This document shows positions 13,187-27,665 of a stretch of DNA of 30,614 nt, piece by piece. The notes beneath the pieces are model-generated. The model made no database searches, was not told the DNA's origin, and was given only the letters and a program-made list of their open reading frames with translations. The stretch covers positions 1-30,614 of IMG/VR virus record IMGVR_UViG_3300029309_000204; one strand, 5' to 3'. The DNA comes from a virus. A program made the translations under genes and the position numbers. Each line of letters opens with the position of its first letter. Position 1 is the stretch's first letter.

Positions 13187-14041
13187 CTACGACTCTCTAC
13201 AAGTTACTTTAATAAGACCAGCTGTGTCAATCGCAACAGCACCAGCAGAATACATAGCACTCACTAGGAATGATGTTTTCTCAGGCACATAGTTGACCTC
13301 AACTTTTGGTGGGATACCCACACCGCAACCGATGGCTGAACGATGATAGAAGAAAGTATTTCTATCGCTGGAACCATCAATAGCTAGCCCGCCTTCATCT
13401 CTCGTGCCTACAATGTGAAACTGAAAACCCATCATGGTATTCAATTCACCAGCAACTAGAGCTTTGATGTTTTGGAAATCTCCAGAGATTGCTCTTTCAT
13501 CGCCAAGAAGACCTGCAAGATTGTTCGCATGAATAACTGCGTGTCTATCCTGCGGAGGAACATTAGCAGCATCCATAGCTTTTTTAGCTGCGATGATTTT
13601 ACCAATGTTCAAATCTGAAGCTGCCGCTGAACCTGAAGTTACTACTGTGTTGGCAATAGTCGCTCCTGGAGAAGCCGCTTCCATAACATCAATTATTATT
13701 TGGTCCTCGCGTCTGGCAATGGCTTTACCCACTACTTGTGCAAGTTCCTGTCTTTCGTCAAAATTAACCTTCGCTTGGTCAAAAATGTCCGAATATTCAG
13801 CCGCAATGTAGTTCTCCATCGTAGCTGTTACTGTTGAGAATGAAGTGTTTAAAGGAACAACATCTGTCTGTGGTGTTCTAATCTGTGCAGTACCCTTACC
13901 AATTTTAGGGAATTTTACAGTTGAACCCTCAACATTTGTACGCATCCTAACACTATCTCTTAATACTGCATCACCTTGATAAGCCTGTTTTACTTCAGCC
14001 TCAAACAAAGTAATAAATGCAGATGATAGTCCTGTACTCAT
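13187..14041 (-). CDS. Major capsid protein
   Basis: This 284-residue protein lies just downstream of the scaffold and HNH genes and has a strong ribosome site (AAGGAG, 7 bases from ATG). It starts MSTGLSSAFITLFEAEVKQAYQG, with VKFPKIGKGTAQIRTPQTDV (about 43-62), an E-loop-like region, FDERQELAQVVGKAIARREDQIIIDVMEAA (about 93-122) and VPPQDRHAVIHANNLAGLL (about 160-180). The pattern and length fit the HK97-fold capsid proteins of marine podoviruses. The codon choice is less AT-rich than that of its neighbours, as expected for the most expressed gene. It has its own putative promoter and a structured leader RNA. Confidence 0.9.
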   Translation of the reverse strand: MSTGLSSAFITLFEAEVKQAYQGDAVLRDSVRMRTNVEGSTVKFPKIGKGTAQIRTPQTDVVPLNTSFSTVTATMENYIAAEYSDIFDQAKVNFDERQELAQVVGKAIARREDQIIIDVMEAASPGATIANTVVTSGSAAASDLNIGKIIAAKKAMDAANVPPQDRHAVIHANNLAGLLGDERAISGDFQNIKALVAGELNTMMGFQFHIVGTRDEGGLAIDGSSDRNTFFYHRSAIGCGVGIPPKVEVNYVPEKTSFLVSAMYSAGAVAIDTAGLIKVTCRES

Positions 14042-14097
14042 TGTGTACTCCTTGTTAAAGTTATTATAAAACTAATCGCCTATCGGTTATTGAAAAA

Positions 14098-14178
14098 ATT
14101 CAGCCTTGGCTACAAGATTACGCTCTTGCAACGACTCATTTCTGAGCAGCCAAACTCGCCCTGAATAGGGTTGTGAGT
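14098..14178 (-). ncRNA. Candidate structured leader RNA of the capsid gene (multi-helix, pseudoknot)
   Basis: In the 178-base gap before the capsid gene, several perfect pairings nest together. Hairpin A: ACTC/GAGT (14178-14175 with 14157-14154) plus CCCT/AGGG around a four-base loop. A three-way junction is closed by TTGGCT/AGCCAA (14153-14148 with 14111-14106). It holds hairpin B, CTCA-GAAA-TGAG with a GNRA tetraloop (14146-14135), and hairpin C, CAAGA/TCTTG around six bases (14128-14113). The loop side of hairpin A (ATTCAG, 14166-14161) can also pair with CTGAAT (14103-14098), a 6-base pseudoknot that would compete with two base pairs of that stem. Local GC is much higher than in the flanks. 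It may be a cis-regulator, ribozyme or mRNA stabiliser; I cannot match it to a known class. Confidence 0.6.
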
Positions 14179-14182
14179 TAAT

Positions 14183-14217
14183 ATTATATTTATAACTCTT
14201 TTTTTATAAAAATTCAA
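14183..14217 (-). promoter_or_regulatory. Putative promoter for the capsid gene
   Basis: On the minus strand TTGAAT (14217-14212) and TATAAA (14194-14189) are 17 bases apart. A second -10-like TATAAT (14188-14183) follows directly. Initiation from either would fall near 14182-14176, right at the start of the structured RNA. The region is AT-rich, so confidence is limited, but the fit with the RNA start supports it. Confidence 0.45.
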
Positions 14218-14219
14218 AT

Positions 14220-14438
14220 TTATTTTTTTGCTCTATTATAAGAACGAGATACAATTTTTAGATTTGATGAATTATTGTTTTTAGGGTTTCCATCTTTATG
14301 GTCAATATCTTTATTATCACCTTTCTTTACAAGACCTTTTTTCATAAGTAATCTTCTATTTTTGTTTCTCATAACTCTGTTTTGTATATCACTTTTAGAA
14401 GATTGAAATTTTTTGTACTCATCCTTATATTTTCTCAT
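14220..14438 (-). CDS. Small HNH-type endonuclease-like protein
   Basis: This 72-residue, very basic protein (about a third Lys/Arg) has the HNH core DIDHKDGNPKNNNSSNLKIV (about 44-63) and a final Asn (N68). The D-H pair (46-47), the NNN/NL region and the terminal N fit the beta-beta-alpha metal fold of HNH nucleases. The N-terminal R-rich helix (RNKNRRLLMKKG) is like the leading part of many phage HNH proteins. It sits alone between scaffold and capsid genes, a typical site for a free-standing homing nuclease, and is followed by the structured RNA. It could be an active nicking enzyme or a degenerate remnant; the catalytic residues appear present. Confidence 0.75.
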   Translation of the reverse strand: MRKYKDEYKKFQSSKSDIQNRVMRNKNRRLLMKKGLVKKGDNKDIDHKDGNPKNNNSSNLKIVSRSYNRAKK

Positions 14439-14441
14439 AAT

Positions 14442-15254
14442 TTATAACTTTCCAGCTCTCTCTAATTCTTCTAAATCTCTCTCAACTTGTTTTCTAAATG
14501 CTACATCATCTCTATAACGAGGGTCAGCGACTCTAGACAGAACCTCGTCTTTAGCTAAACCACCATCAGAAACATTGACAGTAGGTATTTCTCTCTCACC
14601 CATCAATCCTCTAAATTTATTTAACAATCGTTGACCAGAGGCTGTGCCACCCCATATCTCAAGTTCACTATAATCTTGTTCCGATAATACACCTTTAGAA
14701 ACTAAACCCCTTCCCCATTTAATATTAGAGCTTACAATGTTGTCTGCATTCTCACCAAGTTTTTCTTTTTCTTCTTTAATATGGATTGTTTCTTGTTCTT
14801 GTTGTTCAACACCCATTTCTCCTATTTTAGATACTATTTGGTCAAAAGCAGTTTGTGAAATATTATTTTCTTTTGCCCAATCCTTAAATGTATCTAATAC
14901 AGGGTCACCTTCAGTAAAACCAAGTTCTTTTGATTTATCTAAAGAATACTCTTTCGGTGCTTTAAAATCTCCATTATGAAATTTTTTTTCAAGTTCACCA
15001 TAGGCTTTAGCCAAACCTTCTACATCAGGTCCATCCTTTTCATCCCAAAATTTTTCTGGAAAAGTATCTGGTTTAACAAACTCAAGATTTTCTAAATCCT
15101 CACCCTCAAGAACTTCTTCTTGTTTTCCTGTTGACATACCATCATCAGATACCTCTTTAGTATCTTCCTGTGGTTGTGACATTAATCCTTTATCTTCTAC
15201 AGGTTGTTGTTCTTCCTGTTGATTTTCTTGTTCAGTATTTTCATTTTCGTTCAT
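14442..15254 (-). CDS. Capsid scaffolding protein
   Basis: This 270-residue acidic protein sits between the portal and capsid genes. Its N-terminal 60 residues are Glu/Gln/Asp-rich and low in complexity (ENENTEQENQQEEQQPVED and onward). Next come FPEKFWDEKDGPDVEGLAKAYGELEKKF (about 65-92) and APKEYSL, the hallmark of podovirus scaffolds that resemble T7 gp9. The C-terminus is helical and charged (DVAFRKQVERDLEELERAGKL) and should bind capsid subunits. The start is preceded by AGAGGG and overlaps the previous gene's 3' end by 14 bases. It directs procapsid assembly and is then lost. Confidence 0.9.
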   Translation of the reverse strand: MNENENTEQENQQEEQQPVEDKGLMSQPQEDTKEVSDDGMSTGKQEEVLEGEDLENLEFVKPDTFPEKFWDEKDGPDVEGLAKAYGELEKKFHNGDFKAPKEYSLDKSKELGFTEGDPVLDTFKDWAKENNISQTAFDQIVSKIGEMGVEQQEQETIHIKEEKEKLGENADNIVSSNIKWGRGLVSKGVLSEQDYSELEIWGGTASGQRLLNKFRGLMGEREIPTVNVSDGGLAKDEVLSRVADPRYRDDVAFRKQVERDLEELERAGKL

Positions 15255-24694: not shown

Positions 24695-25405
24695 ATGATA
24701 GTAGCATACATCAGATTAAGTAATGACCAATCAGATATTGATAGGCAAAAGTTTATTATAAATGATTACATAAATCGTAATAACATTACAGACGATGTTC
24801 AGTTTGTTGAGGAGATAGGTACTTCAGGTGGAGTGCCTATCCTTGACAGACCGAAACTAGGTTCTGTTCTCAAAACTGCACCAAAAGGCACAACGATTCT
24901 AACTGCTGACTTGTCTAGGTTAGGTCGTCTAGACTATGACATGATGAAGTTTAGAGATAATAAAAATTTTAATTTAGTGGTGTGTAATAATCCAGAGATA
25001 ACTAAAGATAAAAATAGAATTATGTTTGGTGTCAATGCTATTATGGATGACCAATACAGAAGAGATTTATCTGCCAAGCAAAAAGAAAAATGTTTAGAAA
25101 TGAAAACTTCTATTGCTGAAAAAGGTTATTACATTACTAAATCCACAAATCGTAAGATGACGAAACTCGGTGTGCATAACTCTATGGATAAAGCAAGAGC
25201 AAAAGCAACAGAAGCTCTGAAACAAAAAGCAATAAATAATTTATCCAAAGTTCAGATTCATCTTAACGATGCAAAGAATCATTCCAGGTCTTTACTTGGT
25301 ATGGCTAATTATTTAAATGTTCGTAACATAAAAACTGCCAGAGGTTGTAGTTGGAGTGCCTCCACAGTTAAGAGAGCTTTAGATAGAATATCAACACTTC
25401 ACTAG
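24695..25405 (+). CDS. Serine recombinase (resolvase/integrase type, small)
   Basis: This 236-residue protein has the resolvase catalytic domain: AYIRLSNDQSDIDRQ with nucleophile Ser9, then EEIGTSGGVPILDRPKLGSVL and ILTADLSRLGRLD (69-80) with Arg75 and Arg78. The C-terminal part has SLLGMANYLNVRNIKTARGCSWSASTVKRALDRI (about 199-232), the helix-turn-helix-like 'A..LN..ni.T..G..Ws..tV...L.R' of recombinases. It is longer than Tn3 resolvases (about 185) but much shorter than large serine integrases (over 400), lacking their zinc and coiled-coil domains. It may invert or resolve DNA, or integrate the phage. No attachment site is identifiable. Confidence 0.85.
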   Translation: MIVAYIRLSNDQSDIDRQKFIINDYINRNNITDDVQFVEEIGTSGGVPILDRPKLGSVLKTAPKGTTILTADLSRLGRLDYDMMKFRDNKNFNLVVCNNPEITKDKNRIMFGVNAIMDDQYRRDLSAKQKEKCLEMKTSIAEKGYYITKSTNRKMTKLGVHNSMDKARAKATEALKQKAINNLSKVQIHLNDAKNHSRSLLGMANYLNVRNIKTARGCSWSASTVKRALDRISTLH

Positions 25406-26742: not shown

Positions 26743-27469
26743 AATGAAAGATATGATGAATAAAATCCAAGAGTTAAATCAGACTCAAGGAATAACTCAA
26801 AAAGGTGGTAAAAAATATACGCAAGTTCAAGACAGAGTTGATGTCTTTAGAAAGTATTGCGAATTTAATTATGGTATAGAAACTTCTATGGTTATTGATG
26901 ATGGTACGCGAATAGTTTTTAAAGCTGTAATCAAAGACCTTGAAGGTACTATAATTGGATGTGGATATGCCGAAGAAATTAGAGGACAGGGTTATGTTAA
27001 TAAATTCTCTCCTGTTGAAAACTGTGAAACGAGTGCAATCGGTAGAGCTTTATCTAGTTGTGGACTAAGTGGTGGTGAATATGCCTCATCCTTGGAGATG
27101 GACATAGCTAAAAAGAAAAAAAAAGCCACAGAGAAAGCCACCAAGTCGCAAAACGCAGGTAAGATGAGTGGCAGTACCAAAGACTTAAAAGAGGCTATAC
27201 AACAAGCTAATATCCCTGAATGGACACTATCGTTTCCTGGTGGTAAGAAAAAAACATACGAAACACCAAATGACCTTATTGATGATATTGATTCAATGTT
27301 AGATAAGATATTTGAAAGCGATAAGAAAAGACCAGATGAAAAAATACAATACATTAAAGATTTTTTTGAGTTAAATGATACTCGGATTGCTTATCTTAGA
27401 AAAATAAATAATGACGATACTTTTAGTAACATAGACGAAAAAATTAGGAGGTTTGAAGATGAAAACTAA
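26735..27469 (+). CDS. Probable single-strand annealing protein
   Basis: This 244-residue protein follows the exonuclease with an overlap, as exonuclease/annealase pairs usually do. Its core reads VFKAVIKDLEGTIIGCGYAEEIR (61-83), then GYVNKFSPVENCETSAIGRALSSCG (86-110). The 'ENCETSAIGRAL' motif is conserved in many phage proteins of the Rad52/Erf-like annealing group, as I remember them. Next comes a Lys-rich linker (about 125-150), then a C-terminal domain from PEWTLSFPGGKKKTY, reminiscent of a small binding module. The role would be to anneal strands made by the exonuclease. The assignment to a specific annealase family is uncertain. Confidence 0.65.
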   Translation: MNKMKDMMNKIQELNQTQGITQKGGKKYTQVQDRVDVFRKYCEFNYGIETSMVIDDGTRIVFKAVIKDLEGTIIGCGYAEEIRGQGYVNKFSPVENCETSAIGRALSSCGLSGGEYASSLEMDIAKKKKKATEKATKSQNAGKMSGSTKDLKEAIQQANIPEWTLSFPGGKKKTYETPNDLIDDIDSMLDKIFESDKKRPDEKIQYIKDFFELNDTRIAYLRKINNDDTFSNIDEKIRRFEDEN

Positions 27470-27665
27470 ATCGTTAAAAGAAAGTGTATTTGACTTTATA
27501 ATATCCTACTCTAGCAGTAATGGATTCCCACCAACTCAAGCAGAGATTGCTGATGCACTTGGACATAATACTCGTTCAGCAGTAATACAAGCCTTAACAA
27601 AATTAGAGGTTGATAAAAAGATAACGAGAATCAAAGGTTCATCAAGGTCAATCAGAATACTTTAG
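27459..27665 (+). CDS. LexA-like winged-helix DNA-binding domain, stand-alone
   Basis: From ATG at 27459 (AGGAGG 7 bases upstream) the protein has 68 residues; a TTG at 27453 is too close to that site. The sequence fits the LexA N-terminal domain: VFDFIISYSSSNGFPPTQAE, IADALGHNTRSAVIQALTKLE, then KKITRIKGSSRSIRIL. The usual 'nG.pPT..EIA..lG......v...L..Le.kg.I.r....sR.i..' is clear. There is no peptidase domain, so it cannot self-cleave. It may regulate the phage operon or interfere with LexA sites of the host. It overlaps the annealase gene by 11 bases and the convergent nuclease gene tail to tail by 18. Confidence 0.8.
   Translation: MKTKSLKESVFDFIISYSSSNGFPPTQAEIADALGHNTRSAVIQALTKLEVDKKITRIKGSSRSIRIL

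What the first reader, a model, noticed from the sequence alone, without database searches (positions are those of the whole stretch)
14098..14178. Structured RNA with pseudoknot in the leader of the major capsid gene
Seen: four perfect short helices in about 80 bases, two of them inside a three-way junction and one capped by a GAAA tetraloop. A further 6-base complement (14161-14166 with 14098-14103) can form a pseudoknot. GC here is far above the flanks. A putative promoter starts transcription at its first base, and an HNH gene precedes it. Alternative pairing of AGCC (14109-14106) with the following GGCT is also possible, so it could switch. It could be a phage cis-regulator sensing capsid level or a metabolite, a self-cleaving RNA, or a stabilising 5' cap on the capsid mRNA. 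I cannot assign a known class.
Basis: partly seen in the sequence, partly recalled or inferred. Interest (0 to 1): 0.8.

Follow-up and report, generated by a model that had tools for sequence, protein, structure and literature searches.

The report
Structured RNA leading phage capsid messages
The messenger RNA for the main shell protein of a widespread group of aquatic viruses of bacteria starts with a precisely folded RNA of about 95 letters that evolution has kept in shape in about 175 examined relatives; it is in no RNA family database searched here, and it probably protects or controls this message.

Summary
On the minus strand (14179-14085) lies a conserved 5'-leader RNA of the major capsid gene. 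A covariance model built from other phages finds it in the window (50 bits, E=1.7e-9) and in 94 of 98 sources, once each and only there. A second model covers 81 of 81 OM43-phage-type relatives and cross-hits the first group (E=1e-6). Compensatory changes are massive: about 96% of pairs are kept and about 125 independent double changes were counted. All 12 pairs significant against a tree-based null lie inside the structure. Rfam 15 has no match.

The core is two copies of one asymmetric internal loop (NUAA opposite C, next to CC/GG), circularly permuted. Between them lies an optional two-hairpin domain. A sigma70 promoter lies at fixed spacing, so helix P1 starts at about +1. Many relatives have a terminator upstream, and a constant ~43-nt A+U-rich tract leads to the ATG.

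Best explanation: a 5'-terminal leader that protects the capsid mRNA, with the paired loops as a probable docking site. Shown: fold, position, promoter geometry. Inferred: protection and any partner. A protein operator, put-like antitermination and a trans-acting RNA remain open.

The parts
14205..14210 (-). -35-like hexamer TTTATA
   Evidence: the spacing geometry is conserved in relatives
14183..14194 (-). -10 region (overlapping TATAAA 14194-14189 and TATAAT 14188-14183); predicted transcription start about 14182-14176, the start of P1
14175..14179 (-). P1 5' strand AACUC, the 5'-terminal helix
   Evidence: covariation, helix 1: 98.1% paired, all 5 pairs with double changes
14171..14174 (-). 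Module 1 long loop strand ACAA (AUAA in most relatives)
14159..14170 (-). P1a hairpin CCC-(U)AUUCA-GGG
14158..14158 (-). Module 1 single C opposite ACAA
   Evidence: invariant in seed alignment
14153..14157 (-). P1 3' strand GAGUU
14149..14152 (-). P2 5' strand UGGC
14134..14147 (-). P3 hairpin with GAAA tetraloop
   Evidence: helix 4: 98.8% paired, 4 of 5 pairs with double changes
14112..14129 (-). P4 hairpin GCAAGA-GCGUAA-UCUUGU
   Evidence: helix 5: 100% paired, all 4 pairs with double changes
14107..14110 (-). P2 3' strand GCCA
14104..14105 (-). P6 5' strand GG, base of module 2
   Evidence: helix 6; GG/CC to GA/UC or UAG/CUA changes in MEP301-type relatives
14103..14103 (-). Module 2 single C opposite AUAA
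14091..14102 (-). P5 hairpin UGAA-UUUU-UUCA
   Evidence: helix 7: all 5 pairs with double changes
14087..14090 (-). Module 2 long loop strand AUAA, the same motif as module 1 but permuted
14085..14086 (-). P6 3' strand CC
14076..14084 (-). Conserved tail GAUAGGCGA
14042..14084 (-). 43-nt A+U-rich tract up to the ATG, with Shine-Dalgarno AAGGAG at 14053-14048
   Evidence: tract 36-51 nt in 51 leaders, always lower GC than its locus
13187..14041 (-). Major capsid protein gene (PF19821 Phage_capsid_2)
14220..14438 (-). 72-aa HNH_3 gene just upstream; an insertion not part of the element
14442..15254 (-). T7-type capsid assembly (scaffold) gene, the ancestral upstream neighbour
   Evidence: PF05396

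Best explanation
A conserved cis-acting leader RNA forms the 5' end of the capsid transcript. Transcription from a dedicated sigma70 promoter starts at about the first base of helix P1, so the message begins base-paired. The RNA folds into two copies of one internal-loop module (NUAA opposite C, beside CC/GG), circularly permuted, usually with a P2/P3/P4 domain between them. An A+U-rich tract of about 43 nt then carries the ribosome-binding site. Shown: the fold, single copy, location and promoter geometry. Inferred: the base-paired 5' end shields the mRNA from 5'-end-dependent decay (RppH/RNase E) so that capsid protein is made in bulk, and the two identical loops dock a still unknown factor, or each other, to hold or tune this state.
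For: Fold: two models from separate seed sets give the same architecture with 96.4% and 95.6% of cells paired; double-change cells are 347 and 293, against at most 49 and 52 in slid controls. Against a tree-based null all significant pairs (5 of 5, 7 of 7) are in the structure, with 65 and 60 independent double changes. One copy per locus, always in the capsid leader. Promoter at 5-8 nt before P1 in 17 of 23 and 33 of 39 non-redundant leaders, against typically 0-6 at distant gaps. Terminator with U-run between scaffold gene and promoter in many lineages, and a hairpin about 300 nt after the capsid stop in many, marking a discrete transcript. Constant A+U-rich tract. The P2-P4 domain is dispensable in L033 and L040, and CKB-S2 keeps only the two modules. 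L254, whose capsid protein is 83% identical to CKB-S2, has a plain strong hairpin in the same place instead. 5'-terminal stems stabilise ompA and papA mRNAs in E. coli (papers cited in PMC3997798).
Against: No expression, decay or binding data exist for any carrier. A mere stabiliser would not need invariant internal-loop bases, which point to specific recognition. Transcription starts are predicted, not mapped. Hosts of most carriers are unknown, and RppH/RNase E action in them is assumed. The exact start is ambiguous by a few bases in the window, where two -10 hexamers overlap.
Confidence: 0.42

Rival explanations
1. The RNA is an operator: a phage protein (capsid, scaffold or another) binds the two identical AUAA/C loops when in excess and spreads into or blocks the ribosome-binding tract, giving autogenous control of capsid synthesis.
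For: Strict tie to one gene in all loci; duplicated, sequence-conserved loops; the layout of structured 5' element, A+U-rich tract and RBS resembles the T4 gene 32 operator described in PMC3014915.
Against: The close Vibrio relative L254 keeps an 83%-identical capsid protein but lacks the RNA. No alternative structure that hides the SD is conserved. Binding untested.
Confidence: 0.25
2. The nascent RNA binds host RNA polymerase and makes it read through terminators in the late operon, as the HK022 put RNA does.
For: Starts at or near +1 of a sigma70 promoter; MEP301 has no RNA polymerase gene (PMC8024684); put RNA is about 70 nt, has two stem-loops with a bulged loop, and putL lies just downstream of its promoter (PMC9378689); hosts range from OM43 betaproteobacteria to Vibrio.
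Against: Only at the capsid gene and single copy per genome, whereas HK022 has two put sites. Many carriers keep a hairpin about 300 nt after the capsid stop. No sequence or RNA-polymerase contact test was possible.
Confidence: 0.14
3. The leader is released or acts in trans as a small RNA in capsid assembly or DNA packaging, like the phi29 pRNA.
For: Compact multi-helix RNA next to the capsid gene.
Against: No terminator follows it, and it is continuous with a constant-length tract to the capsid SD and ATG. Reduced forms lose half the structure.
Confidence: 0.05
4. Metabolite-sensing riboswitch or self-cleaving ribozyme.
For: Compact and highly structured, with conserved loop bases.
Against: Tied to one structural gene, no hit to any Rfam riboswitch or ribozyme, no conserved SD switch, core reducible to two short hairpins.
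Confidence: 0.04

Closest known systems
5'-terminal stem-loop stabilisers (ompA, papA leaders)
   Same: Base-paired from the first transcribed base, followed by a single-stranded ribosome-binding tract, on a very highly expressed message
   Different: Those are simple hairpins; this has a conserved multi-helix fold with duplicated, sequence-conserved internal loops
T4 gene 32 leader operator
   Same: Phage structural element at the 5' side plus an A+U-rich tract reaching the RBS
   Different: Gene 32 uses a pseudoknot bound by an ssDNA-binding protein; no conserved pseudoknot here, the regulated gene is the capsid gene, and no binder is known
HK022 put RNA
   Same: Two stem-loops with internal bulges at or near +1 of a host-polymerase promoter in a phage
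   Different: put occurs at early promoters, twice per genome; this is single copy at the late capsid gene and has a different, permuted loop motif and an optional P2-P4 domain
phi29 pRNA
   Same: Phage structured RNA with a junction, linked to the capsid by function
   Different: pRNA is a free RNA with its own gene (general knowledge); this is a leader continuous with the capsid mRNA

Membership tests
Any Rfam 15 family | Covariance-model score at or above the gathering cut-off | tested here: not met
   Window plus 30 related loci, 0 matches; lax searches give only weak chance matches far below cut-off
5'-terminal stem-loop mRNA stabiliser | Helix starting within a few nucleotides of the transcription start | tested here: met
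   Comparative promoter geometry, (start predicted, not mapped)
5'-terminal stem-loop mRNA stabiliser | Removal of the stem shortens mRNA half-life | not testable with these tools
   Needs decay assays
T4 gene 32-type operator | Pseudoknot nucleation site | tested here: not met
   The proposed pseudoknot is lost in close relatives, and no covarying pair lies outside the nested structure
T4 gene 32-type operator | Unstructured A+U-rich tract overlapping the RBS | tested here: inconclusive
   Tract GC is below locus GC in 51 of 51, but mean predicted SD accessibility is only 0.34-0.44
HK022 put RNA | Two tandem stem-loops with bulges just downstream of a promoter | tested here: inconclusive
   Layout similar; homology or common fold not shown
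HK022 put RNA | Terminator read-through through the RNAP beta' zinc-binding domain | not testable with these tools
   Needs transcription assays
phi29 pRNA | Separate RNA transcript that joins the packaging motor | not tested
   Leader is continuous with capsid mRNA by sequence; no RNA data

The most novel reading that the evidence does not exclude
An RNA-only late-gene regulator: the leader's two permuted AUAA/C modules dock on host RNA polymerase as it leaves the capsid promoter and reprogram it for the structural operon, a second natural kind of put-like antiterminator RNA in abundant phages that lack their own polymerase.
Probability: 0.13. Interest if true: 0.92.

Novelty: new variant of a known kind. 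Interest (0 to 1): 0.7.

Why it matters
It is a covariation-supported RNA family absent from Rfam 15, carried by phages from marine metagenomes to OM43 and Vibrio isolates, and placed at about +1 of the gene for the most abundant virion protein. These phages have little known late-gene control. MEP301 and CKB-S2 were isolated on named hosts, so function can be tested directly. The permuted double use of one internal-loop module is an unusual RNA architecture and a clean target for structure and partner identification.

Tried and rejected
Pseudoknot 14161-14166/14098-14103: rejected, it is broken in close relatives and competes with P5. AGCC/GGCU switch: a 2-nt loop, not viable as a hairpin. 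Minimum-energy fold of the window alone mispairs P1 and P2 with the module-2 strand; comparative evidence overrides it. Plus-strand fold: weaker than the minus strand. HNH gene as functional partner: absent from near-identical relatives. A MAFFT alignment of all MEP301-type leaders (A2) misaligned P1a and P5, so a smaller seed (A3) was used. The element is not universal for related capsid genes: not found in HTVC010P, HTVC024P, Skadi, Hodr, SI2, ZCVPP1, 1.182 or most Vibrio phages tested. L255 and L250 have module-2-like sequences by eye, but my strict descriptor did not detect the two-module core, so I do not count them. R1 does not score MEP301-type loci; the groups are linked by R2 hitting L055. 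RNase III sites: the stems are too short by general knowledge. Literature searches found no description of this RNA in open-access papers; subscription papers were not covered.

Full report
WHAT WAS CLAIMED.

WHERE IT LIES. The capsid gene (PF19821) runs 14041..13187 on the minus strand, so the leader RNA is the reverse complement. Rfam 15 gives nothing at gathering level for the window or for 30 related loci, and only weak chance matches with relaxed thresholds. The window record is a 31,275-base virus contig.

RELATIVES. The capsid protein finds hundreds of relatives in IMG/VR. I used three queries and read 236 leaders, 62 of them non-redundant. Nearly all carry a homologous stretch. Two groups were aligned separately, one around L062 and one around Methylophilales phage MEP301. 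RNAalifold, without guidance, gave the same architecture for both.

STRUCTURE. Reading 5' to 3' in the window: P1 (AACUC/GAGUU) encloses an ACAA strand, the hairpin CCC..GGG and a single opposite C (module 1). Then P2 (UGGC/GCCA) holds P3 (GAAA loop) and P4. Then P6 (GG/CC) encloses a single C, the P5 hairpin UGAA-UUUU-UUCA and the strand AUAA (module 2). Modules 1 and 2 are the same internal loop, NUAA followed by CC opposite GG followed by C. In module 1 the CC/GG side is capped; in module 2 the other side is capped: a circular permutation. P2-P4 are missing in L033, L035, L040 and L041, which are exactly the four of 98 sources that model R1 does not find. Vibrio phage CKB-S2 keeps only the two modules (descriptor score never reached in 200 shuffles).

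PROOF OF STRUCTURE. Model R1, built from 27 L062-type leaders with no window-type sequence, hits the window at 14181-14077 minus with 50.2 bits, E=1.7e-9, and nothing else convincing there. It hits 94 of 98 sources once each, in the capsid leader. Model R2 hits all 81 MEP301-type loci and, across groups, L055 with E=1.2e-6. Pair counts: 96.4% of cells paired, 23 of 28 pairs with double changes, 347 double-change cells against 20-49 in slid controls; second group 95.6%, 22 of 26, 293 against 9-52. A mutual-information test with a null that re-scatters substitutions on the tree gives 5 and 7 significant pairs, all inside the structure, and 65 and 60 independent double changes. Caveat: the trees were built from the RNA itself, the pair-count alignments were fitted to the model structure, and the null is my own simplified version of the R-scape idea.

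PSEUDOKNOT. In L026, L030, L031, L039 and L042 the loop strand changes while its proposed partner does not, and the partner is the P5 strand. Rejected.

TRANSCRIPTION UNIT. Scoring -35/-10 pairs by distance from P1, 17 of 23 and 33 of 39 non-redundant leaders have a promoter ending 5-8 nt before P1, against typically 0-6 at distant gaps. So P1 starts at about +1. Many lineages carry a U-tailed terminator between scaffold gene and promoter, with different stems, and many a hairpin about 300 nt after the capsid stop. Between element and ATG lies a tract of 36-51 nt that always has lower GC than its locus, while the element always has higher GC (51 of 51 leaders). Predicted SD accessibility is middling, so I do not claim that the SD is free.

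MECHANISM. Shown: fold, place, copy number, promoter geometry. In one record, L102/G006, the model matches twice; the two matches lie at the two ends of the contig, as expected if it is circularly permuted. Inferred: protection of the 5' end and a docking role of the duplicated loops. The shared denominator of all forms is a stem at the 5' end, and a close relative of CKB-S2 (L254, 83% capsid identity) has a plain hairpin instead. This favours 5'-end protection as the basic function, by analogy with ompA and papA leaders (cited in PMC3997798). The sequence conservation of the loops argues that something specific is recognised, so an operator (T4 gene 32 as model, PMC3014915) and a put-like polymerase-binding RNA (PMC9378689; MEP301 lacks an RNA polymerase gene, PMC8024684) are serious rivals.

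NOVELTY. Structured 5' leaders are a known kind; this family, its permuted double module and its link to the capsid gene were not found in Rfam 15 or in the open-access papers searched.

Noticed in passing
L056, L062, L055 upstream of the leader: A perfect or near-perfect inverted repeat between -35 and -10 of the capsid promoter (ACAAGCTACAGCTTGT, ACAACCTCCAGGTTGT, ACAAGATGGGTCTTGT) whose arms change together, a likely operator for a phage regulator.
   Followed up: partly
window 27453-27665 (+): 70-aa LexA-type helix-turn-helix protein (PHROG 362, transcriptional repressor), a candidate regulator of phage promoters.
   Followed up: no
window 14438-14220 (-): 72-aa HNH_3 gene inserted between scaffold gene and capsid promoter, absent from near-identical relatives (L002, L003); the reduced RNA forms (L033, L035, L040, L041) also have an HNH-like coding end just upstream.
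   Followed up: partly
window 24695-25405 (+): Small serine recombinase (resolvase/invertase-like, PHROG 95/125) in a lytic-looking podovirus, as in MEP301.
   Followed up: no
window 12891-12868 (-): GC-rich hairpin GGGGAGGGTTTTTCCCTCCC after the small gene downstream of the capsid gene, possibly ending or attenuating the capsid transcript.
   Followed up: partly
L244, L246, L254 capsid leaders: Vibrio relatives have a plain strong hairpin at the same place as the structured element, apparently a replacement.
   Followed up: partly
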